Source: a virus | DNA length: 24,630 bases | Direction: 5' to 3' (one strand) | IMG/VR virus record: IMGVR_UViG_3300028115_000109 | Span: 1 to 24,630 of that record | Part shown: one piece after another, positions 7,784 through 23,127 of the stretch | How positions within the stretch are numbered: the stretch's first letter is position 1 | Layout: the number at the start of each line of letters is the position of its first letter | The notes under the pieces: generated by a model | Database searches by the model: none | What the model saw: only the letters and a program-made list of their open reading frames with translations | Told to the model about the DNA's origin: nothing | Program-made: the position numbers and the translations under genes

Positions 7784-8995
7784 TCACACGAAAGGATTAT
7801 TTTCTGCACCAGGAAAACCCCCAAAAGGAAGATTTGTTGACTCATGAGTTATAGCTTCAGGATTTTTTGTTCCAGCTATAGAGTTAAACCCTCTTAATTC
7901 TTCAATATTCCCAAACCTTTTTTTACAAGCACTAACGCTTTTAGAACATTCATCTTTTAACCAATATTCTGTGTCTAAAAATGGATGATGATCACTAGCA
8001 ATTCTATGACTCTTTATACAAACAAATACCTGTGGAATATTAAGATAAGGGTTACTTGAATTATGATTAATAATCTGAACAACATCTCCAGTAGAATATC
8101 CTTCTGGATTTTCCTGAGTACCTTTAATAAAATTCCTTATAGTATTCCCTCCTGAAAAAGATTCTTCATATCTATGGCCAAATTTATACCATTCTGGCAC
8201 GGCATTCAACAATTGTCCCTTGCCAGTATATCTCTGAGCGTCAACTTTTCCATATGAAGCAAGATTCAAATCAGAAGATTCAGAATTTTGGGCGTTAGAA
8301 TTATACTTTAAATCTCTAACTAAATTTTTACCTTCTAAAGTTTCTATAGGAAGTCCTTTATAATTACATCCAATTTCACATCTATAAGTCCAAACACAAT
8401 GGTTAGCGATTATTGGTCTAGCCGGAATCCAAGCATTTTCCATTTCAAGCGCAGACACTAGCTCGAATTGAATAGAATTTTTATCTTCAGATGTTTTTCG
8501 GTTTATAAAATATATATCATCAGGAAAATGAGCTGCATCGTCACTCCTCCCAAAAGCATTCCTGTTTTGATCATTAACGCCCCTTGATGAAACTTCAAAA
8601 TTTTGATTATCCAAGAACCTAGCAAAAGTTCTTTTTCTTGTAACCTTGCAATTAACAAAATCCTGATTGGCATATAATATCTTAGAAAATAAACCTTCTG
8701 GATTAGCTATTGTTAATTTAGGCCTAGGTAATTTACCTTCCCCCTGATACTCAAAACCTTCCATCTTAATTGGTAGCGGTTGATAAGAATTTCCCTGCCA
8801 TACCAAAGGGTTTGTTCCATTGATCATTGGACAAAATCTATACACAGGCTCATCGTTCACGTTAACAGAGTAAACGTCCTTTAAAAACTCAAGGCTTTTC
8901 TGCAGATTGCTAAAATCAATTTCATATAAATCAATAACAGCATCTGGGGTAATAGATATTACTTGCTTATTTAAATTTGAAGAAGACTTACTCAT
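7784..8995 (-). CDS. Minor tail protein L-like (Fe-S tail tip protein)
   Basis: Encodes 403 residues, against about 230 for lambda gpL. gpL bridges tube and tip and binds a 4Fe-4S cluster through four cysteines in its C-terminal domain. Here Cys200, Cys206 and Cys210 lie in HCVWTYRCEIGC, and Cys350 and Cys357 in DECSKSVSACKKRFG, followed by the typical LPFGGFPG end. The extra length lies mainly between these cysteine pairs (residues 211-349). It includes a carbohydrate-binding-like segment at 299-346 (YSTGDVV ... VFVCIKSH ... EYWLKD). The N-terminus also fits gpL: a Leu-Tyr-Glu-Ile-Asp run, Phe-Cys at 54-55, and PLPIKMEGFEYQGEGKLPRP. The start ATG overlaps the upstream TGA by four bases (ATGA). 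Confidence 0.92.
   Translation of the reverse strand: MSKSSSNLNKQVISITPDAVIDLYEIDFSNLQKSLEFLKDVYSVNVNDEPVYRFCPMINGTNPLVWQGNSYQPLPIKMEGFEYQGEGKLPRPKLTIANPEGLFSKILYANQDFVNCKVTRKRTFARFLDNQNFEVSSRGVNDQNRNAFGRSDDAAHFPDDIYFINRKTSEDKNSIQFELVSALEMENAWIPARPIIANHCVWTYRCEIGCNYKGLPIETLEGKNLVRDLKYNSNAQNSESSDLNLASYGKVDAQRYTGKGQLLNAVPEWYKFGHRYEESFSGGNTIRNFIKGTQENPEGYSTGDVVQIINHNSSNPYLNIPQVFVCIKSHRIASDHHPFLDTEYWLKDECSKSVSACKKRFGNIEELRGFNSIAGTKNPEAITHESTNLPFGGFPGAENNPFV
7958..8101 (-). repeat. Carbohydrate-binding-like module inserted between Fe-S cysteines of gpL-like protein
   Basis: Residues 299-346 follow the CBM5/12-like order GYSTGDVVQI, PQVFVCIKSH, Pro-Phe-Leu, EYWLKDECSK. The end of the module runs directly into the Cys350-x6-Cys357 pair. 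Sugar binding is inferred from the family pattern only. Confidence 0.6.
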
Positions 8996-11900
8996 TTTAA
9001 ATTAATACTAGGCCGGAGATATTGATCGTCACTTGGTCTAGCAGGTCCATAACTAACATTATAACCTAAATCTTTTAGCATTCCAATAGATATTTCAGAA
9101 AGAGCTGCACCTTGATTAATTATAGGAACTGCTGGAGCCCTAGCTATCAAACCAAAATCAGTACCTATTTCCCCAGGAAATGTTGGTTGTATTTTATCAA
9201 CTCCTTCGTTAGATACATTGCGAACCTCGGACCTTAAATATAAACCAGAATCAGTCAGAGGAATTTTATCTTTATAAAAATCAGAAAGTGGACTATTAGT
9301 AGGCATATTAAGTTCTGTATTAGAGCTTCCCTCGGCATTCCAGTGATTTAACCCCCACTCTATTTTAGACTGCTTTTCTTCTTCTGATTCTTCAGCCAGG
9401 TAAGCATTATAAGCATCCAAAACAGTTGGATTTTCATCAACATATCTCTCGTAATCATTGACATCAAAAACAATCCCCTCTTGACTATAAGATTGAAGTA
9501 ATTCTTGATACTTCAGCACCGCATTATCACCAATATATTGATAAACTGAAGAATTATTTTCTGATAAATTATAAGCTGCATCAACATTCGCATCATCTTT
9601 CCACCAAGTTCTATTTTGAGACCAAAGAAAACCTACACCTAGCATATTTATCAATTCATGCAATACAGTATAATAAACAGGAGTATGTTGTGAAGCATCA
9701 TAATTAACATTAACAATTTGATTATATTCCGCATTATTTATTTTTTCTGGGTCAATAGTCATTACAGCAGAAATTCTTCTCGCAAAATAATTATCATCAG
9801 GAATAACATAAGACTCAAATCCACCAACATATAATTTTACAAAATTAGATCTATCTAAATGAGCAAGACCTTTATTTAAAAATTCTTTTTCTGTATGGGT
9901 AATCTTAACTACATTCTGACTCTCAATACTAGAGCCTAGACGACCATGGTGATCTTCTAGAACTGTAAGATTTATGGAAAATTCATCTTGAACAATAGAC
10001 TCTAAAGTTGAAACCGCATCTTGTATTTCCTTTTTATGATCTTCACTAAGTTCTGTTTTAAAATCAATATCAACCTCTAATCCTTTATTTAGTATTTGAG
10101 GTAGCGAAGATTTTTGAAGTGAATAATACTCGGAATTTAATTCTGGGTATGTGCTTTTATATATGTCAGATACGATATTAAAACTTGTACGATCAAGAAC
10201 ATGCGCCCAAGCCTTTAAACACGATTGATTTTCATAAACCATTTTCTTTACCTTACTTTCGCCAAATGTAGGATTAATAATTTTATTCCATTCATATTCA
10301 GCATTAGATAAAGTCCAACCTGTAGATACATCTATCTCCGTTAATTCTATTATTCCTTTAGTTATATACAATACATTTTCATCCCTAATTGTATAAGCTA
10401 AAACATCAGATCCTATAGTAATTCTGTAATCAACTTGCTCTATCTCTTCTAAACTTAGCGGATTCATAGCTTCATCGAAGACTGATTGTTCGATAAATAT
10501 TTCACGTTTATCCCATAAATTTCTACTAAATGACTCTAAATGATAACCTCCTTGACCCAGAAGGATAATTTTATCAAAGCCTATAGATGAATTTTCAACC
10601 ATATCGTATATCTGACCAGACACAGCGTAAGCTTTTTTTACAACATTATATCTATTATTACTGGCTTTTACTATACCATATTCTGATATAGAATTTAAAA
10701 CAGAAAACTCAATATTACCGCAACTTTCTACTGAATTATCAAGCCAACATAATATTTCCGCAAACAAGAATTGAGAATCACTATCAATAAATGATTCTAT
10801 AAAAGAAGAATTTAGAACTCTAGATGTAATTTTAGTTAAACCTCTCTGTGCGTAACCCTTAGTATAACCATTAGGAAGTTCAGCTTGAGGTATTTCTCTA
10901 ACTTCTATCAATGTATGATCTTCGGTATTTGCAGAGGATATATTTTGAGTGTTAAACTTTAAAGGCTTGCTTGAAAAATCTTTTTCTATTGAATCATAAT
11001 AATGCGAAGAAGTTTGAAAAATTACGCTATCATCATCTAAAGAATTGTAATAAGATGAACCTCTCGGTAAAACAATAGAAGATTTATCATCGCTCAGAGG
11101 AAGGGTATGCCCTTGATCTTTTCCGTTTTCAAACCAATAATTTAACCCCCACAATTTCTTAGGTTTAGGATATGCTCCTGCAGAAGCAACATAATTTTCG
11201 TAAAGCTCAAGAACTCCTTCTTGAGAGTCGACGTAAGATTCATAATCTCCATTCTCGGAATAAGCTTTAATTTCATACGGAACCCACAAACCAACAAGTT
11301 TTTTGAAATCTTGTTGTCCAATTTCAAATCCTATAACTGCTCTAGCCCGATTCTCAGAAGGTTGCAATTCTGTATTATTGATATAAAAACCAGGTGTGTT
11401 CAAAAATAAAAATGGAGCATTTATAACGTTCTCGTAAGACCATGGAGAAATCTCTTCTTCTTCTTGTATAGTTTCGTCATTAAATTTCACCCAAGCATTA
11501 AGGCTTGATACCAATGAATCGCCTTGGGATTCTATATATAAATTACCTTCTACAGAATTTATTCCCCGACCTATTTTTATATAACCCTTTTCTCGTCCAA
11601 AAGAATCTGTCCAAGATATTTCATTACCCGCAGAGTCAGTTAAAAAACTATCTGCTTGAGCTTTAATCTGAAAATATAAATCAATATATCCCTCTTCCCC
11701 TCCTCTTATAATGTTAGTAGAATAAAGCTCAAATACTCTTTGATCGACAAAATATAAATCAATAGATTCTAAAGATCGACCACTAGATTCTTGAATAATT
11801 ATACCTTGATTATTTTGAAAATAATTTTCATTTGTAGATATAACTTTAAATCCTCTGCCGTTTAAAGTTCTTTTCTTCAATTGAATCTGCATTCCATTCA

Positions 11901-14565
11901 ATCCTATGTCAGATAATTTATTATCAGGAATGCATATTTTTCTGTCAGTTCCTGTTATTTTTTGAGTGATTACCTTCGGATTATTTCTTAAAAAATTAGC
12001 CCTAACATCAGAAGACTCGATTGTTAGCCTTACTTCATTTAAACTGGATTCATTTAAAAGAGAATTTATAATTGATTGAGTTGGTGTTTCCCCGATCAAG
12101 TCTTGATAAATAATTTGTATATCTTTACTCGTTGGACTCTTTAATAAGAAATCTTGACTATTTAAAATCGCGATCACTAAATCAGCAACCCTCCATTGCT
12201 GTTCATTAGACTTGTCGATATAATATGAATCCAGCATCGCCTCGCCCATGATAGATAAATATATATCAGATATTTGACTATCAGTCATAGAATCTTCTCT
12301 AGAAAAACCTTGTGGACAATAATTCGACCCAAAATCATTTTGCCCAAGAATATGATATTCATCGTTAAGTGAATCGGTAGATATTAGATTGATTTCTGCA
12401 CTTAAATCACCAATATTCTTAAGATTTACCTGCTTCCTTATGTACCCCTTTTCACCCAAGGATTCAATTAGTTCTTCGTCGTCTCTGCTTGAGAAGTTTA
12501 TTGTTTTATTGACTATAATTTCCGCGCGAGCTTGAGAAGCTGGAGTTTCATTGTCTATAATTTTATCGCTATTTAAATCAATAGCATACTGCTCGAATCT
12601 AGCCCTTATGCTATGATTATTTTTGTAATTATATATATGCTGCCATTCTTGACACACAAAATTGTGAGGAGCTTCATATGGAGCTGGAGCAGAAAACATA
12701 AAAGGTATACATCCGTAATGCTGCTCAAGAAAATGCAGTATAGCATAAGCCTCACTATCATCTCTATTATTAAACTGAACCTCTAAAGTCAATAAACTTT
12801 CATTGATTCCGTCTTGATAAATCTGAGTATAACCCGCCCCAAGGGAAATCTCTTGCAGTCTGGGATTCTGAGATACAGTTAATCCCAAAGATGGTTTCCA
12901 CATAAAATCTCTAGTCCATTGCCCTGTATTTATATGTGAGAAATTGCCTAATTCTCTAGTCCATTCTTGATGCATTTCAACAGGAGGCAATCCCTGAGCT
13001 TGACCCTCTCCGCTATGAAAATAATAATATTGATTATTTCCAGTATAAAAAACTACATCGTTTTTTTCGTAATAATCATCTTCAGAGTAAGTGGGGGCAC
13101 TAGCAACAAAAAGAGAATCATTTTTTTGCAATATAGATGTATCCAAGTTCCTTAATTTTACCAAAACATCATTGCTATCTTCGAAATTAAGCGAGTGAGA
13201 AAAATCTTGACAATAAAATTTCTTGGTTTGAATGTCAAGAGAATCATATGGATGAAAAGAAGAAGCTCCGTCCCAATTGAAACCAGAAATACCTTGACTA
13301 TATTTTAAATAAGAAAGAGGCTTATCTTTTGCATCTTGTCCTTGATGATTTTCTAAAAAATGTATAATCGCATTTGCTTCTCGATTTGTTCTATTTTTAA
13401 ATTTTAGATTCGCTTCAAACGTTAAACTATTAATATTCTTTGGGTGAACAACATAATAACCATTTCCGTATTGATATTTATAGTTATTAGCTTTATAATT
13501 TACAATTGCTCCATAGTCAGAATCAAAAAAGAATCTATCTTTTGACCACAAATCAGAATCATCAGAAGGATCAACAAGAATTCCAGATAAAATAATATTA
13601 TTACTTGACCTGGTTTCATAAGAGTTTATTTGATAAGATTCATTTACTGGCTGAATTCTTATTCTTGTATTCTTTCCATTATTATTCAAAGAAGCAACAC
13701 TTTCTTCAGGAGCATTTATTATCGATAAATCTGGAGCATCAATTTTTTGAATTTCATTAAATGAATTAAATCCAAACCACTGAAGATCAGTATAATTATA
13801 AAACAAAGCCTTATAATTACCTTGAGGGTCATTCCTCCAATGAAGCCATGAATTTGAACCAGCCTTGCTTGGCGAACTTGATCTATTTTCTAAATATAGA
13901 AAGCTGTTTCTTTGATCATTCAAATTACCAAGTACTGCCTTATCTGCATAAAACCACAAACCTTGCGCTAAATCAGAATGAAACCAAAAATTTTGCTCTC
14001 CATCTTCTATCAAGCTTACAAAAATAAAACCAAACAAAGTATTATAAATCCACGATGAATCACCATCTCTACTAAAAGCTGAGTAATCAAGAATAGAATC
14101 CTCTCCAAGATTTGGCCGAAAAAACCAACTAGATTGATACCAACTTAATGTAATATGATTTGCGTCAAAAACTTGATTAAAATCATAAGCTTGGCTAGAG
14201 TGATTGATTTCCTCAAAATCTTTTTCTATAGACAATATTTTATATAATCCGTCTGAACCAACTGTCGAGCCTTGAAGACTTATCCTTTGCCCTTCTTGCA
14301 ATTCGTCAGAGTTGTTCCATTCGTCGTATATATAATATGTTTCAATTCCACCATTACTTGGCCCCACATCATCTAGTGTAAATCGATATTCCCCAGAAAT
14401 AACCGACTGGCTATTATTTACATCATCTCGAGCATAATAAAACCTGCCATCCCCTGTGTTGTAAACAAAATCAAATTTCTGATAATTTTCTCCAGTTTGA
14501 AATATACCCTGATAATTAGAAATATGAGTAGGTTCTTGCGATAGATATATTTTCTGCTGGCTCAT
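8992..14565 (-). CDS. Giant mosaic minor tail protein with duplicated gpM-like domains and metzincin-like C-terminus
   Basis: Encodes 1857 residues and sits where lambda has the ~110-residue gpM, between tail structural genes and gpL. Domains seen in order: carbohydrate-binding-like start (17-60); Trp-rich module (146-262); gpM-like repeat 1 (377-473, NREANAIIHFLENHQG); carbohydrate-binding-like module (491-540); gpM-like repeat 2 (589-659, DSEAYAILHFLEQHYG ... FVCQEWQ); a DUF4214-like helical stretch (about 758-857); a YVD-type repeat (1107-1156); and a metzincin-like domain (about 1490-1840) interrupted by a second YVD repeat (1704-1755). The metal motif is HELIN rather than HExxH, so proteolysis is doubtful. 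Likely a large decoration or side protein of the tail tip. It overlaps both neighbours (TAATG at its start, ATGA at its end). Domain names come from pattern memory; the repeats are seen directly. Confidence 0.78.
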   Translation of the reverse strand: MSQQKIYLSQEPTHISNYQGIFQTGENYQKFDFVYNTGDGRFYYARDDVNNSQSVISGEYRFTLDDVGPSNGGIETYYIYDEWNNSDELQEGQRISLQGSTVGSDGLYKILSIEKDFEEINHSSQAYDFNQVFDANHITLSWYQSSWFFRPNLGEDSILDYSAFSRDGDSSWIYNTLFGFIFVSLIEDGEQNFWFHSDLAQGLWFYADKAVLGNLNDQRNSFLYLENRSSSPSKAGSNSWLHWRNDPQGNYKALFYNYTDLQWFGFNSFNEIQKIDAPDLSIINAPEESVASLNNNGKNTRIRIQPVNESYQINSYETRSSNNIILSGILVDPSDDSDLWSKDRFFFDSDYGAIVNYKANNYKYQYGNGYYVVHPKNINSLTFEANLKFKNRTNREANAIIHFLENHQGQDAKDKPLSYLKYSQGISGFNWDGASSFHPYDSLDIQTKKFYCQDFSHSLNFEDSNDVLVKLRNLDTSILQKNDSLFVASAPTYSEDDYYEKNDVVFYTGNNQYYYFHSGEGQAQGLPPVEMHQEWTRELGNFSHINTGQWTRDFMWKPSLGLTVSQNPRLQEISLGAGYTQIYQDGINESLLTLEVQFNNRDDSEAYAILHFLEQHYGCIPFMFSAPAPYEAPHNFVCQEWQHIYNYKNNHSIRARFEQYAIDLNSDKIIDNETPASQARAEIIVNKTINFSSRDDEELIESLGEKGYIRKQVNLKNIGDLSAEINLISTDSLNDEYHILGQNDFGSNYCPQGFSREDSMTDSQISDIYLSIMGEAMLDSYYIDKSNEQQWRVADLVIAILNSQDFLLKSPTSKDIQIIYQDLIGETPTQSIINSLLNESSLNEVRLTIESSDVRANFLRNNPKVITQKITGTDRKICIPDNKLSDIGLNGMQIQLKKRTLNGRGFKVISTNENYFQNNQGIIIQESSGRSLESIDLYFVDQRVFELYSTNIIRGGEEGYIDLYFQIKAQADSFLTDSAGNEISWTDSFGREKGYIKIGRGINSVEGNLYIESQGDSLVSSLNAWVKFNDETIQEEEEISPWSYENVINAPFLFLNTPGFYINNTELQPSENRARAVIGFEIGQQDFKKLVGLWVPYEIKAYSENGDYESYVDSQEGVLELYENYVASAGAYPKPKKLWGLNYWFENGKDQGHTLPLSDDKSSIVLPRGSSYYNSLDDDSVIFQTSSHYYDSIEKDFSSKPLKFNTQNISSANTEDHTLIEVREIPQAELPNGYTKGYAQRGLTKITSRVLNSSFIESFIDSDSQFLFAEILCWLDNSVESCGNIEFSVLNSISEYGIVKASNNRYNVVKKAYAVSGQIYDMVENSSIGFDKIILLGQGGYHLESFSRNLWDKREIFIEQSVFDEAMNPLSLEEIEQVDYRITIGSDVLAYTIRDENVLYITKGIIELTEIDVSTGWTLSNAEYEWNKIINPTFGESKVKKMVYENQSCLKAWAHVLDRTSFNIVSDIYKSTYPELNSEYYSLQKSSLPQILNKGLEVDIDFKTELSEDHKKEIQDAVSTLESIVQDEFSINLTVLEDHHGRLGSSIESQNVVKITHTEKEFLNKGLAHLDRSNFVKLYVGGFESYVIPDDNYFARRISAVMTIDPEKINNAEYNQIVNVNYDASQHTPVYYTVLHELINMLGVGFLWSQNRTWWKDDANVDAAYNLSENNSSVYQYIGDNAVLKYQELLQSYSQEGIVFDVNDYERYVDENPTVLDAYNAYLAEESEEEKQSKIEWGLNHWNAEGSSNTELNMPTNSPLSDFYKDKIPLTDSGLYLRSEVRNVSNEGVDKIQPTFPGEIGTDFGLIARAPAVPIINQGAALSEISIGMLKDLGYNVSYGPARPSDDQYLRPSINLK
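9046..10098 (-). other. Degenerate leishmanolysin/metzincin-like domain
   Basis: Residues about 1490-1840 of the 1857-residue protein. The region runs from a VDIDFKTELS start through AVMTID and TVLHELINMLGVGFLW (H1636, E1637, N1640) to YIGDNAVLKY and ALSEISIGMLKDLGYNV. Apart from Asn at the second His of HExxH, this is the order I know from M8-like domains in aquatic phage and bacterial proteins. A YVD repeat is inserted at 1704-1755, and no third zinc ligand is clear. Confidence 0.6.
9301..9456 (-). repeat. YVD...WGLNxW repeat, copy 2, inside the metzincin-like domain
   Basis: Residues 1704-1755: DYERYVDENPTVLDAYNAYL, then WGLNHWNAEG and a Leu-Asn-Met-Pro end. It splits the metalloprotease-like domain between YIGDNAVLKY and ALSEISIGML. 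A shorter relative (SYEMFVQNNPGVLERYQRY) occurs at residues 474-492 of the J-like protein. Confidence 0.8.
11098..11247 (-). repeat. YVD...WGLNxW repeat, copy 1
   Basis: Residues 1107-1156 of the 1857-residue protein: DYESYVDSQEGVLELYENY, then WGLNYWFENGKDQGHTLP. It aligns with copy 2 over DYExYVD, VLxxYxxYxA, WGLNxW, G and LxxP. Confidence 0.8.
12589..12801 (-). repeat. gpM-like repeat 2
   Basis: Residues 589-659. Core: LLTLEVQFNNRDDSEAYAIL then HFLEQHYGCIPF, a Pro-rich loop, FVCQEWQHIYNYKNNHSIRA. This is the more typical copy of the gpM/minor-tail pattern. Confidence 0.7.
12946..13095 (-). repeat. Carbohydrate-binding-like module between the gpM-like repeats
   Basis: Residues 491-540: PTYSEDDYYEKNDVVFYTGN, QYYYFHSGEG, PP, EWTREL. 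The order of Tyr, Asp-Val-Val, Tyr-Tyr and Trp matches the CBM5/12-like layout seen elsewhere in the window. Confidence 0.5.
13147..13437 (-). repeat. gpM-like repeat 1
   Basis: Residues 377-473. Core: LTFEANLKFKNRTNREANAI then IHFLENHQG, ending in FYCQDFSHSLNFEDSN. It aligns with repeat 2 over L-T-E-x-x-F-x-N-R and EAxAIxHFLExHxG. Confidence 0.65.
13780..14130 (-). repeat. Trp-rich 'WxY-GW' modules in the 1857-residue tail protein
   Basis: Residues 146-262 contain SSWFFRPN, SSWIYNTLFGFIFVSL, NFWFHSDLAQGLWFYAD, SFLYLEN, SWLHWR and LQWFGFN. These short aromatic strands are spaced 15-25 residues apart. The style matches the Trp-rich module of the J-like protein (2957-3145). Confidence 0.6.
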
Positions 14566-16602: not shown

Positions 16603-19600
16603 TTAATCACTCAAAAGTCCTCCGGCCCGTTGCTCCTCAACAATAACAGCAACAACCTGCTGCTTGATTCTTTCTGCTAGATCTGCATTTTTTTGTTCAT
16701 CATTGGATCGATCCGCCGGATTTTCTCCTGAGGAGCGTTGATCTTTATCTTCTTTAGAGTTAGACCCCTTGTCCATGTTAATTGAAATACTTATGTTATT
16801 AGTATTGCCGCCAGTTGTAGAAGATTTATCAGACGAATCTATTTGAGTTACAGCTCCTCCATCATTAAATTTTCCTGCGTTTATACGATCCAGCATTGGC
16901 TTTCCTATTTGACGAGCACTGCTTGCGCGAATTACATATTCTCCTTCGCTCAACATTGCGGGAATTTGGTCGATTCCAGACTTGCCTGAGATGTGGCCGC
17001 CGCTTGCGTATTTGTTGATTTTTCCTCCTCTATAAACGAGTGCCTTTGTTCCAGATGCTAAATCAGCGCCATGTATATAGTCCATTTGAGTCATGCCTGA
17101 GGACTGCAAATAATCACCAACAGATCCTTCATCAAAACCTCCCCCCAAAAGCTCTCGATCACCCCCAAAATCAATACTATTCATCATTTGACTAACACCC
17201 ATACTTACAGCCGTACCAATCAATTGATTTATTAAAGCTCTTTTTTTTGCTTTTTTCTTCATTCTTTCCTGAAGAGCTTCTTGCCTTTTTCTGCTTTCTT
17301 CAGACATTATTTCCTGTATTTCTCTAGAGTCCTCTTGCAAACCTAGGGTTTGAGTTTGTCCGGCATAAAACATTGAAGACATGGGTTTTGATTGATATTT
17401 TCTTCCGGACTCATACACTCTAGCTCCTCCGAAATTTGCAGCCAATGCAGAACCAACCTCGCCCCCGTCATTAAATCCTGGTATTTTAAAAAATGAACCT
17501 AAAGACTTAAAAGGCGAGAATAACATCTCAAGAATTTTACTCATGAATCCGCCTCCAGCAGGATTAATTGCATCAAAAACATCTCTACTTGGCGCCTGCC
17601 CTAAAAAATTACTCCGGCCAACTCCTATCTCTGAACCAAATACCCTACGGGAAGATCTTGATGAATTTATAGCTCCTTTTATATCTGTACTATATTTTTG
17701 ACCCTGAATTGGTTTTCCAAAAATTTCTGATAGACCTTGAGATGGAGGATTTTTAAAAAAGTCCCCAACACTTCTGCCTCCATTTGAAAGTCCAGGAATA
17801 GTTCCTCCTGCATTCAAGCTATGCATGAATGCTCCACCGTATTTGTTTACTGCATCGCGACCCATCACATATTCGCCATCGGTTACCATAGCTGGTACGC
17901 CGCCACCGCGACTATAATTACGTATAGCTCCGCCACGATATTTAGCGCCAGGCATTGGAATATTGCCGACAATTTGGTTTGCTATATTTGTTAAGTATGC
18001 CCCTTGTATCGCTTGCAAGAAATTCATGGCAACATTATTCAGCACATCATCAAGATCCTCGGCTTGATTGATTGCAGCTTGCATGCCAGAAACCAACCCA
18101 TCTCTAAAATTTGTAGCAACAATAGTGCCAAGTTGATGATCTAATTCATCTGCACTTCGCCTCATTTTTTCTTGTTCTGCGGCGAATCCATATTGAAATG
18201 CTTTGGGGCCAGTTCTTTGACGGATCAATTCATCAGTTATTTGTTTTTCTGTTTTTGCTCGGTTTTTTGCTTTTTGTTCTATATCAGCGTAATCTTCTTT
18301 TAAAGAAGAAAGTTCTTGTGACGAATTTCTTAGAAATGCATTTATTTTTTGAAGATAACCAGATTGCTTTCCAACCTCTATAGCAATTTCTTTTTGATCT
18401 TCTACACTGAGATCTGCAAATCCTTGCTCGGACAAACCTTGAGCGGCAAGTTCCTTTTTAAACTCTTGCTCAAAGTCACTACCTTGCAATGTTGTAATTA
18501 ATTTTTTTGTTTGCCCAAATTCAGCTTTTCTTTCAGAATCATATCTAGCAGCCGCAGCAGTATTAATAGCTTTATTGTATGCGTTTTGAGCTTTTTCCGT
18601 CTCTGTCATCAGATGTCCCCTCGTTCTAAGCTCGAAATCATATTGATTATTCATTTCCGCAAGCAGATTACTTGAAACACGCATATCTTTATTAAATTTG
18701 TCTTGAGCGGAAAGTAAAACTTTTTCTTTATTTAAGCGAAGAATTATTGCGTCGTTTTCTTGCTTTCTGAGCATTTCTTGATCCTGCAATCGGTTAGCTA
18801 TTTCTGAAAAAAGCAGCTCTATTTCTTGGGGTGTTTTGCTTTGTAATCCTGAAAGAATAGTTTTGCCACTAACCTGCTCTTCTCCAAATAATTCTTTAAA
18901 TATCTTACCTCCTGAAAACATTTTATCTTCAGAACCTCTAAAGGCTTTAGATAGTATTTCTTTTTGAGATCGAGTCCTTCCTAGAAATTCCATAGTTTTT
19001 GCGCCGACAGCCTCTGGGTTTTTTTCTTGAAAGTCTCGCAAAGTTTTTACATCAGCACCACCTACTTTATAAATTATGTCTTCTTCTTGTTGATTCAGGT
19101 CCTGTATTCTTTTACTTATTCCCGCCTTTATACCTTCATAATCTTGTTCAGATAAGCTTCCAGACATTCGATCAGAAAGAATTGAAAACATTTTCGAGCT
19201 TAATGCTTGTCGTTGTTTTTGTATGTTAGAAGTCCCTTCTTCAACCATTAATGATTTAACAGCCTGAGTTCTTACGGTTTTTAAATGCTGTTGGACAGAA
19301 GGTAAATCCCTATATGATTCTTCAGCTGTATAACTTTTCCCTTCTTTGATTTTTTTTAGAACTTCCTCTGGTGCAGAAAATTTAAACATCATATCCGAGA
19401 ATGCTTCTCCTGGCTTAGGGCTATATCCTGAAAAATATCGCCCCCCCACTTCTGTTGCTGGTTTCAAAGCAATATCACTTAAGCCAGATTCGATAAAACC
19501 TCTTATGCTTTGATCAAATTTGCCAGACGTTGCTTGTCGCCTTGCTCGAGCTTCGTCTTCTATAGCTTTGTTAGACTCGTTTAGGCTTGATACTAATCCC

Positions 19601-22600
19601 CCCAACGCTCCAACCGCGGCACCAATTGCAGTACCCCAACCAGGAAACATCATACCCACAGCTGCACCTGTTGCAGCACCACTCATCATTCCTGATGCAA
19701 TACCTCCTGCAGAACCAGGCTTATCTGCTCCAGGAATAAATCCAGCAAGCATTGGAAGTCCCATCATCAAGCCCATACCGCCCATTCCTTGGTTCATATT
19801 TTTAATTCCTCCAACCAATTTAGCTCCAAGCGTTTTCCTTTTTGCGGTATTAGCTGCAACTTGTGTTGTGTTAGACTGAGAAGCTATGGTGTTTGCTTGT
19901 TGTGACACTGTGTTTCTTGTTGTAGAGGTGGTGTTTTTTTGTTTTTCTGTGGTATTTTGTTTTGTGATTTTATCTGCCTTATCTAGTCCACTCTTACTCA
20001 ATTCAATAGATTTGCCATTTTTCTTTTGTTTTTTAATGGTTTCATCTATTTGTTTTCTATAATCTTCCTCTGAATACATTGAAGCATCAATACTTTGAAT
20101 TTGCTCGTTTATTTTTCTAGCGAGAGCTTTTCTTTCGTCATTATTTCCAGCGTCTTTACCTATATCTCCGGCTGTAAAACCTTCTGCATAATTCGGCACA
20201 AATCCATTCGCACCAAACACATCGCGCAAACCATTTGGCTCATCATGTGTATTGGTTACGCCGAGGCCGAGAGGATTACTTTTGTTTATGAGTGCGCCGT
20301 GTGAGCCCACACGAATTTGTGAAACTGGAACACCAGCCGCTTTTTCTCGGCCTATTGCATCAGATAATGGATCGGCGAAGTTGGGGATGTGGCCGTATGC
20401 TCGAGCTTTGGAGTAAAAATCGTTTTTTAATCTTTCTAAATTTCCGTATTTACCTTTTGGCCAACTCGCAAAAGTCCTCTTGCTGTTCTGTGCCGGAACC
20501 AGAGGGTCTCCTTCTTGCCCTCTTTTGTTAATATAGTCTTGAAGCTCAGAAGTATAACCCAGGCTTGCTAAATTTTTTTGAGAAACTTGACCCTTAGGAG
20601 CAAAGGCCATTGCTTTTGCTCCTCCTATACCCTCATAACTATCAATCCTGTAGAATTTTTCTGCGGCAGATTTAAGATGGGCTGCATCACCACCACTTCC
20701 TAGCGCTATTTTAGCTTCAGCCCCAAGACTTCCAAGCGGTCCAGCCCCAAATAAATCCCACAATGCATCTCTGCCAGGCCTAGGAATATCTAACAATGCA
20801 TTTCCTGGAGGGTCTACGCCGTAAGCTTCCTTAGCAACTCCTTTCTGAACTGACATGATAATTTTTTCAAAAATTTTACCAGAAGCAACTGCTACATCTG
20901 AAGATGTTATTACGCTGGGAATACTAGGCATCTTAAACAGCGAATTAACAAGTTGATTCGAAGTTTTTTGCGCTTGCTTAATTAGGTCTCCCTGTATTTT
21001 ATTTTTAATTTTAGGATCATTAGCTTCTCGCTCTTTATCATCTTTACCAATAGTAAAATATGGAACATTCACAGCCTTCATCCCGGTTTTTTTTGTAGCG
21101 CTAAATTTTTTATCTCCGCTTTTTGCACTGGGGTTTATATAAATTATATTTTTCTTTCTGTCTGGACCAGTATATCCACCGCCATCTTGAGCAGAACCAG
21201 CAAATAATACCATTTTACTATCCGCATTATATGTTTGCGCAAAATTCGGTATATATCCCCCCGCAGCATATGGATCGAATCCATGTATACTACCAAATGC
21301 TTGTTGATAATTTTTTCCAGCTTTGCTGGATTGTGGGGGCATGATTGCGGGCTGTTTAAAGCCTGCGAAATTTTTGACTGTTTCTGCGCTGTTGTATATG
21401 ACTGGGCCTTCGCCAGGCATGTTCATACTACGAATTGTTCCAGCAGCATATCCTCCTCGTGCAGCTTGTGCGCGCTCGGGGTCTGCATAATTTGGAATAT
21501 GACCTGAAGCTCTTCGCCTTCCTTGTGTTAAATTTGGGCCAAATCCCTGTCGATACAAAGTACTTGCGGCTTGTTTGCTTACTACATTTAACGCGTTCGC
21601 TTCTGCAACTTGAGCTTTGAGTAAACCAAGTATGATTTTTTCCTTTTCGGTGCGACTGATATCGGTACGCAACATTTCTTTATTGAGAGCTGCGTTTTGA
21701 CCAAACAATGTTACCAAGCTTGTTTGTATGGCTTTTTGTTTTTGAGCTTCGCTTGTTGTTCCAACCAAAGAAGTTAAACTTTCTTTTGTGAATTTAGCTG
21801 CTTGACCTAAAAGTTTAAAAAACACTGCTGTAAGCATAACCAATCCTGGTCCAGTCAGCACATTACCTATGCCTTTGAGTAATCCTGTGGCGAATTTGCC
21901 TCCAGCGCTTTCTCCATCTCCAAGAGCGCCTCCTATTCCCTCAGCAAAGCTTTTGACTGTGTTCAATATTTTCTCCATTCCAGGAGCAAGCATGATTTCG
22001 CCAATTTGCGCGCTAACTTGCTTGATAGCCAATCCTGTTTCAGTGGCCATTGCACTCATGGTATTTCGAAGCTGCTCATTTTTTTGAATAGATTCATCTG
22101 TGGCTGCAGCAGATATTCTTGAAGCTTCAGCCAGAATACCATTTTGCTTGGCCGCATCACTCAAAACAGCTTTTAAAATGTTGATCTGAAAAACTCCACC
22201 AACAGTTTGAGCAATCTGAGCTTTTTGCGCCGCAGATAAGGTATCAAATGTATTCGCAAGATCACTAAGTATCGTCTTGGCGCCCAAAACATTTCCCTCT
22301 ATATCCCTTACAGCTATGCCAAGACTTTCTAATTGGTTCAATGTATCGGTTCTGCCAATACGAGTGAAAATTGTTTTCAATGAGTTTCCGATTACTGCAC
22401 CACCACGAGCAGTTTTTTGTTGAGCCGCCGTAACAATACCTACAAATTCATCAATATCAACTCCCGCACTCAAAGCAGACTGTCCAGCTCTTGAGATGGC
22501 TTGAGCAAAGTCTTCGGCGCTAACCGCAAACTTAACATCAACCGCAGCAAACTTACTAACAAGCTGAGTGGTATCTTTTATTTGACTACCGTATGTGTTC

Positions 22601-23127
22601 ATTGCGGCAGTCAAGGCTTTTACAGCTTCAGCTGAATCCATGCCTGTCAAACGGGTCAAGATCAGAGCATCTTTGGTTCTCTTTAAAGATTCCTCAACGC
22701 TCAAGCCTTGACGAGCATATTCTGTTGCAGCTTGAGCGGCAACATTGAATGCTGCACCAGCTTCTTTTGCTACTTTAAAAAGGCCATCTCCAAATTTATC
22801 CAAGTTTTGAGTGCTTAAGCCCATCACAACATTGATATCGGCCATAGCTTTTTCGACCTCAACCATATTGCGAACCATGCCTTTAAATGCATCAGCTACT
22901 CCATTGATTATGGCCATACTAGCACCGAACGCAAGAATACGAGCATTAGCAGCCTCCATCGATTTGGTAAACTCATCAGCACCCCGTTTCATGTTGCCAA
23001 GAGGCTGAGTTGCACCCTTGTCATCAATGGTTATTTTGATGGGCGTACGGCGAATTCTATTTACAGCCGCTTGTACCGCCGCTTCAAGCGGCTTAGTATT
23101 ACCATGTACGTCAAGATCAATAGCCAT
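16603..23127 (-). CDS. Tape measure protein with IPNFA motifs and an embedded nuclease-like segment
   Basis: Encodes 2174 residues. The TMP sets tail length, fills the tube and enters the cell envelope at infection. Residues about 55-330 match the TP901-1-type tape measure N-terminal domain (EVEKAMADINVVMG, AAQAATEYARQGLS, AQAISRAGQSALSAGV). Four IPNFA-type motifs lie at 542-548, 624-630, 912-918 and 975-981. Residues 749-870 have a PD-(D/E)XK-like pattern. An Asn/Thr-rich linker (1051-1096) precedes hydrophobic Gly/Ala-rich segments (1110-1183), then long charged helices (1185-1660). Two Gly-rich GEYV repeats lie near the C-terminus (1730-1784 and 2032-2093). At 0.15 nm per helical residue the upper bound is about 320 nm of tail; globular inserts reduce this. 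Two tandem AAGGA sites precede the ATG. Coding G+C is higher than in the tip genes. Confidence 0.93.
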   Translation of the reverse strand: MAIDLDVHGNTKPLEAAVQAAVNRIRRTPIKITIDDKGATQPLGNMKRGADEFTKSMEAANARILAFGASMAIINGVADAFKGMVRNMVEVEKAMADINVVMGLSTQNLDKFGDGLFKVAKEAGAAFNVAAQAATEYARQGLSVEESLKRTKDALILTRLTGMDSAEAVKALTAAMNTYGSQIKDTTQLVSKFAAVDVKFAVSAEDFAQAISRAGQSALSAGVDIDEFVGIVTAAQQKTARGGAVIGNSLKTIFTRIGRTDTLNQLESLGIAVRDIEGNVLGAKTILSDLANTFDTLSAAQKAQIAQTVGGVFQINILKAVLSDAAKQNGILAEASRISAAATDESIQKNEQLRNTMSAMATETGLAIKQVSAQIGEIMLAPGMEKILNTVKSFAEGIGGALGDGESAGGKFATGLLKGIGNVLTGPGLVMLTAVFFKLLGQAAKFTKESLTSLVGTTSEAQKQKAIQTSLVTLFGQNAALNKEMLRTDISRTEKEKIILGLLKAQVAEANALNVVSKQAASTLYRQGFGPNLTQGRRRASGHIPNYADPERAQAARGGYAAGTIRSMNMPGEGPVIYNSAETVKNFAGFKQPAIMPPQSSKAGKNYQQAFGSIHGFDPYAAGGYIPNFAQTYNADSKMVLFAGSAQDGGGYTGPDRKKNIIYINPSAKSGDKKFSATKKTGMKAVNVPYFTIGKDDKEREANDPKIKNKIQGDLIKQAQKTSNQLVNSLFKMPSIPSVITSSDVAVASGKIFEKIIMSVQKGVAKEAYGVDPPGNALLDIPRPGRDALWDLFGAGPLGSLGAEAKIALGSGGDAAHLKSAAEKFYRIDSYEGIGGAKAMAFAPKGQVSQKNLASLGYTSELQDYINKRGQEGDPLVPAQNSKRTFASWPKGKYGNLERLKNDFYSKARAYGHIPNFADPLSDAIGREKAAGVPVSQIRVGSHGALINKSNPLGLGVTNTHDEPNGLRDVFGANGFVPNYAEGFTAGDIGKDAGNNDERKALARKINEQIQSIDASMYSEEDYRKQIDETIKKQKKNGKSIELSKSGLDKADKITKQNTTEKQKNTTSTTRNTVSQQANTIASQSNTTQVAANTAKRKTLGAKLVGGIKNMNQGMGGMGLMMGLPMLAGFIPGADKPGSAGGIASGMMSGAATGAAVGMMFPGWGTAIGAAVGALGGLVSSLNESNKAIEDEARARRQATSGKFDQSIRGFIESGLSDIALKPATEVGGRYFSGYSPKPGEAFSDMMFKFSAPEEVLKKIKEGKSYTAEESYRDLPSVQQHLKTVRTQAVKSLMVEEGTSNIQKQRQALSSKMFSILSDRMSGSLSEQDYEGIKAGISKRIQDLNQQEEDIIYKVGGADVKTLRDFQEKNPEAVGAKTMEFLGRTRSQKEILSKAFRGSEDKMFSGGKIFKELFGEEQVSGKTILSGLQSKTPQEIELLFSEIANRLQDQEMLRKQENDAIILRLNKEKVLLSAQDKFNKDMRVSSNLLAEMNNQYDFELRTRGHLMTETEKAQNAYNKAINTAAAARYDSERKAEFGQTKKLITTLQGSDFEQEFKKELAAQGLSEQGFADLSVEDQKEIAIEVGKQSGYLQKINAFLRNSSQELSSLKEDYADIEQKAKNRAKTEKQITDELIRQRTGPKAFQYGFAAEQEKMRRSADELDHQLGTIVATNFRDGLVSGMQAAINQAEDLDDVLNNVAMNFLQAIQGAYLTNIANQIVGNIPMPGAKYRGGAIRNYSRGGGVPAMVTDGEYVMGRDAVNKYGGAFMHSLNAGGTIPGLSNGGRSVGDFFKNPPSQGLSEIFGKPIQGQKYSTDIKGAINSSRSSRRVFGSEIGVGRSNFLGQAPSRDVFDAINPAGGGFMSKILEMLFSPFKSLGSFFKIPGFNDGGEVGSALAANFGGARVYESGRKYQSKPMSSMFYAGQTQTLGLQEDSREIQEIMSEESRKRQEALQERMKKKAKKRALINQLIGTAVSMGVSQMMNSIDFGGDRELLGGGFDEGSVGDYLQSSGMTQMDYIHGADLASGTKALVYRGGKINKYASGGHISGKSGIDQIPAMLSEGEYVIRASSARQIGKPMLDRINAGKFNDGGAVTQIDSSDKSSTTGGNTNNISISINMDKGSNSKEDKDQRSSGENPADRSNDEQKNADLAERIKQQVVAVIVEEQRAGGLLSD
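16849..17034 (-). repeat. TMP Gly-rich GEYV repeat, C-terminal copy
   Basis: Residues 2032-2093: YRGGKINKYASGGHISGKSG, IDQIPAMLSEGEYVI, then an Ile-Asn-Ala-Gly and Asn-Asp-Gly-Gly end. This is the well-known tape measure C-terminal repeat ('GG..sG.DtiPamLs.GEyVi....G...l..iN.G'). Confidence 0.85.
17776..17940 (-). repeat. TMP Gly-rich GEYV repeat, first copy
   Basis: Residues 1730-1784: YRGGAIRNYSRGGGVPAMVT, DGEYVMGRDAVNKYGG, SLNAGG. It aligns with the copy at 16849-17034. Its coding line is about 53% G+C by hand count, above its surroundings, partly because of Gly and Ala codons. Confidence 0.85.
19579..19800 (-). other. TMP hydrophobic Gly/Ala-rich segments
   Basis: Residues 1110-1183 include GLMMGLPMLAGFIPG and AATGAAVGMMFPGWGTAIGA followed by AVGALGGLVSS, with Gly or Ala at regular steps. 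Such stretches in tape measures are thought to enter the host inner membrane during DNA delivery. Insertion is inferred. Confidence 0.6.
20185..20205 (-). repeat. IPNFA-type motif 4 (GFVPNYA)
   Basis: TMP residues 975-981. It closes a ~70-residue unit that begins at motif 3 and contains AAGVPVSQIRVGSHGA and NPLGLGVTNTHDEPNGL. Confidence 0.8.
20374..20394 (-). repeat. IPNFA-type motif 3 (GHIPNFA)
   Basis: TMP residues 912-918. Codons from Tyr911 to Ala918 all end in C (TAC GGC CAC ATC CCC AAC), which is unlike the three other copies and the surrounding AT-rich coding. Confidence 0.85.
20518..20883 (-). other. Candidate PD-(D/E)XK nuclease-like segment inside the TMP
   Basis: TMP residues 749-870. 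A helix with Glu (SGKIFEKII, E754) is followed by a loop NALLDIP (D780), then RDALWDLFG (D787, D791), then the strand-like LGAEAKIAL (E804-x-K806), then a helical stretch AAHLKSAAEKFYR. The order Glu ... Asp ... ExK fits the restriction endonuclease-like core. IPNFA motifs lie at a distance on both sides (2 and 3). Enzymatic activity is a hypothesis; it may also be a catalytically dead structural insert. Confidence 0.4.
21238..21258 (-). repeat. IPNFA-type motif 2 (GYIPNFA)
   Basis: TMP residues 624-630. It closes the unit that starts at motif 1 and contains AAGTIRSMNMPGEGPVIYNS and a QPAIMPPQSSKAG stretch. It opens the region leading to the nuclease-like segment. Confidence 0.85.
21484..21504 (-). 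repeat. IPNFA-type motif 1 (GHIPNYA)
   Basis: TMP residues 542-548, right after the conserved N-terminal part and a basic GRRRAS stretch. Codons here end mostly in A or T, unlike motif 3. Confidence 0.85.

What the first reader, a model, noticed from the sequence alone, without database searches (positions are those of the whole stretch)
20374..21258. Possible PD-(D/E)XK nuclease cargo inside a tape measure protein, between IPNFA motifs
Residues 749-870 show helix-Glu (FEKII), Asp in NALLDIP and RDALWDLFG, then LGAEAKIAL with an ExK pair, followed by a helical segment. This is the residue order of restriction-endonuclease-like folds. The segment lies between IPNFA motifs 2 and 3 (residues 630-912), and tape measures are ejected into the envelope with phage DNA. 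A nuclease delivered this way could act on host DNA, competing phage DNA or a packaged substrate. The AT-rich coding of the insert (about 25-35% in sampled lines) differs from the GC-rich IPNFA units on each side. Seen: motif order and flanks. Inferred: fold and delivery.
Basis: partly seen in the sequence, partly recalled or inferred. Interest (0 to 1): 0.72.

Follow-up and report, generated by a model that had tools for sequence, protein, structure and literature searches.

The report
Swappable nuclease-like cargo in phage ruler
A phage protein that sets tail length carries, between short repeated motifs, an exchangeable segment with the conserved active-site pattern of a nucleic-acid-cutting enzyme, which suggests that these phages may inject varied enzymes as part of their ruler protein.

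Summary
The segment is real: aa 624-918 of a 2174-aa lambda-type tape measure protein (TMP; 16603-23127, minus strand), between GYIPNFA and GHIPNFA. All named residues are present. The bare motif was weak evidence (loose form in 81% of shuffles); conservation makes the case. In 80 non-redundant relatives the columns read 754 E/D (75/5), 780 D (80 of 80), 804 E/D (40/40), 806 K (80 of 80); D791 is not conserved. This is the PD-(D/E)XK residue order. The fold is unconfirmed: a fair AlphaFold model (pLDDT 80.9) matched no solved or viral structure significantly. The wider pattern is firmer. G[YFH][IV]PN[FY]A motifs divide these TMPs into modules. The module between motifs 2 and 3 is a hotspot (median identity 28% against 81% for the N-terminus), and near-identical modules occur in diverged TMPs with changes near the motifs. 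75 of 77 TMPs of this N-terminal type carry the nuclease-like family; other slots hold a SNase and GNAT-like domains. No immunity gene fits directly downstream in the 40 of 54 loci where this could be read. Best reading: a modular effector-carrying TMP whose main cargo is a diverged PD-(D/E)XK-like nuclease. Activity, injection and target are inferred.

The parts
16603..23127 (-). tape measure protein, 2174 aa
   Evidence: PhageMin_Tail E 7.6e-27; several PHROG tape measure families, best E 1.2e-53
21484..21504 (-). motif 1, GHIPNYA (aa 542-548)
21238..21258 (-). motif 2, GYIPNFA (aa 624-630)
20395..21237 (-). cargo module between motifs 2 and 3 (aa 631-911), nuclease-like family, cluster 2
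20638..20907 (-). nuclease-like core (aa 741-830) with E754 (20866-20868), D780 (20788-20790), E804 (20716-20718), K806 (20710-20712), K824 (20656-20658)
   Evidence: alignment A8, 80 sequences; model 2
20374..20394 (-). motif 3, GHIPNFA (aa 912-918)
20185..20205 (-). motif 4, GFVPNYA (aa 975-981)
20206..20373 (-). module between motifs 3 and 4, the commonest module type (cluster 0)
   Evidence: 71 loci in cluster 0
21259..21483 (-). conserved module between motifs 1 and 2 (cluster 1)
   Evidence: 54 loci in cluster 1; median identity 0.84

Best explanation
The tape measure protein of this lambda-like siphophage is also a carrier of exchangeable effector modules, with short G[YFH][IV]PN[FY]A motifs at the module borders. 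The module between motifs 2 and 3 (aa 631-911) is a diverged PD-(D/E)XK-like, metal-dependent nuclease whose active site would be E754, D780, E804 and K806. Shown here: module borders, residue conservation, recent module exchange with changes near the motifs, purifying selection, near-universal presence in this tape measure type. Inferred: the module sits in the tail tube, leaves with the tape measure protein at infection, folds at or inside the inner membrane in a few copies, and cuts nucleic acid that hampers the infection (host DNA or RNA, or DNA of a rival phage or plasmid). Its fast divergence would reflect an arms race over the target or an inhibitor.
For: 80 of 80 relatives keep acid/D/acid-x-K, with D780 and K806 invariant; in cluster 4 E, D, E and K are invariant in 9 of 9, and in cluster 6 E, D and K in 6 of 6 with E or D before K. 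K or Q follows in the next helix in 79 of 80. Clusters linked by hhalign (97.9, 89.5, 68.9, 91.6%). Cargo median identity 0.28 against 0.81 N-terminus (250 pairs of 46 TMPs). Module transfer: window/L055 cargo DNA 0.999, N-terminal DNA 0.769; L014/L059 0.954 against 0.705; borders near the motifs. dN/dS of the module in window pairs 0.137 (L020) and 0.342 (L022). Family in 75 of 77 TMPs of the N-terminal set and in 56 of 93 independent motif-picked loci. Another nuclease type, SNase, in an IPNF-bounded module of L182. Lambda tape measure protein acts at the inner membrane during injection (PMC13190303, passages).
Against: No significant fold match for either model; no Pfam, PHROG or PDB sequence match for the window's module, and the one Pfam row is noise (E 0.094). 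PADLOC gave a type II endonuclease model for only 1 of 80 members at E 0.0047. The model shows a helix between D and ExK and no clear three-stranded meander. No biochemical data; a folded ~25-kDa domain may not fit a tail tube. No virion or ejection evidence for this phage group.
Confidence: 0.6

Rival explanations
1. The module is a swappable enzyme or ligand-binding domain of another kind (some Rossmann-like alpha/beta domain), not a nuclease.
For: No fold match to nucleases; the weak VIA rows are STING and Rab-type alpha/beta domains (best Z 3.4).
Against: Those Z values are within noise by the tool's own note; conservation falls on acid, D, acid-x-K.
Confidence: 0.2
2. The module is a toxin with an immunity partner, aimed at competitors, as in polymorphic toxins.
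For: Hypervariable module behind fixed flanks and a toxin-like repertoire including SNase and GNAT-like domains; a Sle1-type effector with an immunity protein exists (PMC13277306 section 10).
Against: In 40 of 54 loci the next gene starts within -3 to +3 nt of the TMP stop, leaving no room for an immunity gene directly downstream; in 51 of 54 the listed upstream ORF ends within 150 nt. The other 14 downstream flanks were cut (4), had only a distant small ORF (2) or no ATG-started ORF listed (8).
Confidence: 0.12
3. The nuclease is a selfish homing-type element embedded in frame, spreading itself by cutting alleles that lack it.
For: Recent transfers of near-identical modules between diverged TMPs; homing nucleases at phage exchange borders are known (PMC10448857, listing and abstract start only).
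Against: Present in 75 of 77 TMPs rather than patchily; a P-loop-like, non-nuclease module is exchanged in the same way (L067/L071); I saw no empty site in these 77, though L057 and L058 lack the family.
Confidence: 0.06
4. The module is a structural or DNA-end-binding part of the tail, its acidic and lysine residues kept for assembly or for handling the phage's own DNA end.
For: Near-universal presence in this TMP type.
Against: Its sequence diverges far more than the rest and unrelated modules such as SNase occupy similar slots elsewhere.
Confidence: 0.1

Closest known systems
PD-(D/E)XK nuclease superfamily (motif order recalled)
   Same: Acid, D, (E/D)xK in order, then K or Q in the following helix.
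   Different: 24 residues with a predicted helix between D780 and E804, extra N-terminal strands; no profile or fold match found.
Polyvalent proteins of phages and conjugative elements (PMC5512222, passages read)
   Same: Varied enzymatic domains in one virion-associated protein thought to be injected with DNA.
   Different: The passages describe head proteins; the phrase 'tape measure' does not occur in that paper's main text. Here the carrier is the tail ruler and modules are bounded by a fixed motif.
MuF polymorphic toxins of temperate phages (PMC5576092, abstract and outline)
   Same: Phage structural protein with variable toxin domains, proposed to be delivered into host bacteria.
   Different: MuF proteins belong to the DNA packaging module; here internal modules of a tape measure protein.
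Sle1-type effectors of actinobacterial contractile injection systems (PMC13277306, abstract and sections 10 and 12)
   Same: Tape-measure-related protein with a variable functional domain, packaged in a phage-tail-like particle; one is said to act presumably on nucleic acids.
   Different: Bacterial injection system, C-terminal domain and, in one case, an immunity protein; here a phage, internal modules between motifs.

Membership tests
PD-(D/E)XK nuclease superfamily | conserved D ... (E/D)xK with an upstream acid | tested here: met
   80 of 80 relatives, D780 and K806 invariant
PD-(D/E)XK nuclease superfamily | alpha-beta-beta-beta-alpha-beta core fold | tested here: inconclusive
   model 2: pLDDT 80.9, no significant match in PDB or BFVD; order helix-strand-helix-strand-helix
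PD-(D/E)XK nuclease superfamily | profile match to a described nuclease family | tested here: inconclusive
   none in Pfam for the window; 1 of 80 members hits PADLOC REase_II at E 0.0047
PD-(D/E)XK nuclease superfamily | metal-dependent nucleic-acid cleavage | not testable with these tools
   needs bench assay
Tail tape measure protein | TMP N-terminal domain, long coding frame in tail operon | tested here: met
   PhageMin_Tail and PHROG hits; neighbours minor tail protein L and fibre J
Polyvalent injected protein | several unlike enzymatic domains in one protein | tested here: inconclusive
   window TMP has one recognised cargo; some relatives have several modules, e.g. SNase plus a VD...EMK-type module in L182
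Polyvalent injected protein | packaged in the virion and injected with DNA | not testable with these tools
   needs virion proteomics and an infection assay
Polymorphic toxin | variable effector part behind constant parts | tested here: met
   0.28 against 0.81 median identity
Polymorphic toxin | adjacent immunity gene | tested here: not met
   no room directly downstream in 40 of 54 loci; other 14 not readable

The most novel reading that the evidence does not exclude
A widespread group of largely uncultured phages uses the tail tape measure protein as a modular magazine: interchangeable enzyme cassettes, mostly a fast-diverging nuclease family, are plugged between IPNFA motifs and injected with the genome, making the ruler protein a first-wave weapon against host or rival nucleic acid.
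Probability: 0.5. Interest if true: 0.88.

Novelty: new variant of a known kind. Interest (0 to 1): 0.76.

Why it matters
Tape measure proteins are mostly treated as rulers and membrane conduits (recalled). One with defined cargo slots would give phages another virion route for injected effectors besides head-packaged polyvalent proteins and MuF toxins, would explain why the middle of these proteins varies so much, supplies nuclease-like families that Pfam does not hold, and makes the question whether enzymes travel through a tail tube directly testable.

Tried and rejected
GC argument: rejected for the core. D791 as catalytic: D in only 13 of 80. Model 1 (281 aa, 21 sequences): pLDDT 67.7, no match. 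Model 2 (225 aa, 80 sequences): pLDDT 80.9, no significant match. Modules with a VD...EVK pattern (8 sequences) were not linked to the cargo family (hhalign probability 0.1%), had no PDB match and in Pfam only DUF4683 for 1 of 8 at E 0.0028. L007 and L008 match in an unrelated protein and look like chance. Domain counts with profile A8 were dropped because A8 contains flanking motif columns; counts come. One search used 46 TMPs: L009 (near copy of the window), L024, L026, L047, L050 and the more distant loci were left out, and 250 random pairs were scored. For A8: 138 HMM hits, 96 after removal at 85% identity, of which I used 80 (clusters 2 and 3, with the window in place of its own slice L001) and left out the 16 of clusters 4 and 6. 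The strict pattern was found in 145 of 147 family modules; the other two are L085_1 (a 93-aa piece cut off by a loose motif match, as I read it) and L035_2 (AE in place of FE). The pattern counts for clusters 4 and 6 come from a loose regular expression, so I rest on the alignments. In 'cargo' means the segment between the second and third motif, which in some loci is another module type; over all listed pairs its dN/dS runs from 0.02 to 0.50. Named hosts: the genome scan gave 12 loci, eight of them better matches on MAG contigs and four weak Firmicutes hits; 1 of 295 genomes of one class held the family, namely the MAG already known; of six MAGs two had matches. Kinase-like, HAD-like and ADP-ribosyltransferase-like readings of other modules are by eye only: no supporting Pfam hit, no telling PDB hit for the kinase-like and HAD-like ones. 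Earlier description sought; in those listings I saw no paper on IPNFA motifs or nuclease modules in tape measures, but the library is open-access only, the listings were capped, and most papers were seen as titles and abstract starts.

Full report
What is there. The window is a 24,630-base virus record with a lambda-like tail operon on the minus strand: tape measure protein, minor tail protein L, tail fibre J. The tape measure gene, 16603-23127, encodes 2174 aa. Window 20374-21258 is aa 624-918, from GYIPNFA to GHIPNFA; related motifs stand at 542 and 975. The loose residue pattern is cheap (80.8% of 5000 shuffles), the strict one less so (1.9%). The composition contrast holds for aa 651-770 only.

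Relatives. A scan with the N-terminal 541 aa gave 78 loci (best 80 hits kept). Most have three to six IPNFA-type motifs; the range is 0 (a cut locus) to 11. I cut out the stretches between motifs and clustered them. The stretch between motifs 1 and 2 is conserved. Between motifs 2 and 3 most loci have a member of cluster 2, 3 or 4; more distant tape measures have these, cluster 6 or single modules. Clusters 2, 3, 4 and 6 show acid, D and (E/D)xK and are linked by profile comparison (97.9, 89.5, 68.9 and 91.6%).

Active-site test. Of 138 HMM hits 96 remained at 85% identity, and 80 (clusters 2 and 3) were aligned. Position 750 is G in 80; 754 E in 75, D in 5; 780 D in 80; 804 E in 40, D in 40; 806 K in 80; 824 K in 64, Q in 15, gap in 1; 791 is D in 13. 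In cluster 4 the four residues are invariant in 9 of 9; in cluster 6 E, D and K are invariant in 6 of 6, with E or D two before K. From recalled knowledge this is the residue order of PD-(D/E)XK nucleases.

Fold test. Model 1 was poor (pLDDT 67.7). Model 2 (pLDDT 80.9, pTM 0.76) gives helix 112-139 with E124, a short strand at 151-152 next to D150, helix 157-163, strand 172-178 with E174 and K176, helix 186-199 with K194, and four strands before residue 63 (add 630 for protein numbering). Foldseek against PDB (best E 0.66) and BFVD (best E 0.068) found nothing at E 0.001, and VIA-align's best Z was 3.4. The fold is neither confirmed nor excluded.

Module exchange. Over 250 random pairs of 46 tape measures median identity is 0.81 for the 540 aa before motif 1, 0.84 for motif 1-2, 0.28 for motif 2-3 and 0.80 for motif 3-4 (lower quartile 0.24, since some loci have an extra module there). 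Three cases show near-identical modules in diverged proteins: window/L055 (module DNA 99.9%, N-terminal DNA 76.9%), L014/L059 (95.4 against 70.5%) and L067/L071 (97.6 against 65.1%; a P-loop-like module). Sliding identity puts the changes near motifs: in the window it reaches 1.00 at aa 618 and falls at 918 (motifs 624 and 912); L014/L059 638 to 878 (motifs 626, 867); in L067/L071 the shared stretch starts at the motif at 913 and runs on through the next motif to about 1150, and another shared stretch lies at 560-620. dN/dS of the module in window pairs is 0.137 (L020) and 0.342 (L022).

How common. Of 77 tape measures of the N-terminal set with a complete module, window included, 75 carry the family (76 of 256 modules). 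In all, 147 of 567 modules belong to it. Other modules in IPNF-bounded slots include a SNase domain (L182; Pfam E 1.9e-9; PDB thermonucleases, best E 1.8e-4), GNAT-like domains (L137 above, L132 below the Pfam cut-off) and P-loop-like modules with AAA hits below cut-off. The motif occurs in 207 of 1997 ORFs of 120 aa or more; in L009-L086 its only carriers besides the tape measure were five single-motif ORFs on the other strand.

Context. In 40 of 54 loci the next gene starts within -3 to +3 nt of the tape measure stop; in 4 the flank was cut, in 2 only a distant small ORF and in 8 no ATG-started ORF was listed. In 51 of 54 an upstream ORF ends within 150 nt. So no immunity gene sits directly beside the gene where this could be read; one elsewhere in the genome is not excluded. 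tblastn of three cargo modules and of the motif 3-4 region found nothing in 50,697 GenBank phage records; the whole protein matched 94 of them, at most over about 16% of its length. Among 295 bacterial genomes of one class only the MAG already known held the family.

Interpretation. Firmest: IPNFA motifs delimit exchangeable modules in a tape measure protein, and the main module keeps a PD-(D/E)XK-like residue set. Inferred: that it is a nuclease, is injected, and acts on nucleic acid in the host. [quoted passage not shown] tape-measure-related effectors of contractile systems have variable functional domains (PMC13277306, abstract and sections 10 and 12). Head-packaged polyvalent proteins (PMC5512222, passages) and MuF toxins (PMC5576092, abstract) are the nearest phage precedents. 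The listings showed no paper describing such slots in tape measures.

Noticed in passing
L182:8760-9341 (-) and L182:8067-8738 (-): Two neighbouring IPNF-bounded modules in one tape measure protein: a SNase domain (Pfam E 1.9e-9) and a module with a VD...EMK-type pattern.
   Followed up: partly
L057, L058: Tape measure proteins with 11 and 9 motifs and large modules, without the nuclease-like family.
   Followed up: no
L209, L210: Eight-motif tape measure proteins on two contigs of a MAG labelled Halobacteriovorax; whether phage or contamination was not tested.
   Followed up: no
L063:10343-10927 (+), L065:10409-11002 (+), L088:711-1424 (+): Modules that look kinase-like by eye (glycine loop, DLHGxN, IDPG); no Pfam or PDB support.
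   Followed up: partly
L185:678-1331 (-): Module that looks like an ADP-ribosyltransferase by eye (YRG...SFST); no Pfam hit.
   Followed up: partly
window 8992-14565 (-): Large minor tail protein whose C-terminal part holds HELINMLGVG, reminiscent by eye of a degenerate zinc-metallopeptidase motif.
   Followed up: no
one member of alignments A6 and A9 (not singled out): An inter-motif module matches Pfam DUF7178 at E 1e-12, so that uncharacterised family also occurs as tape measure cargo.
   Followed up: no
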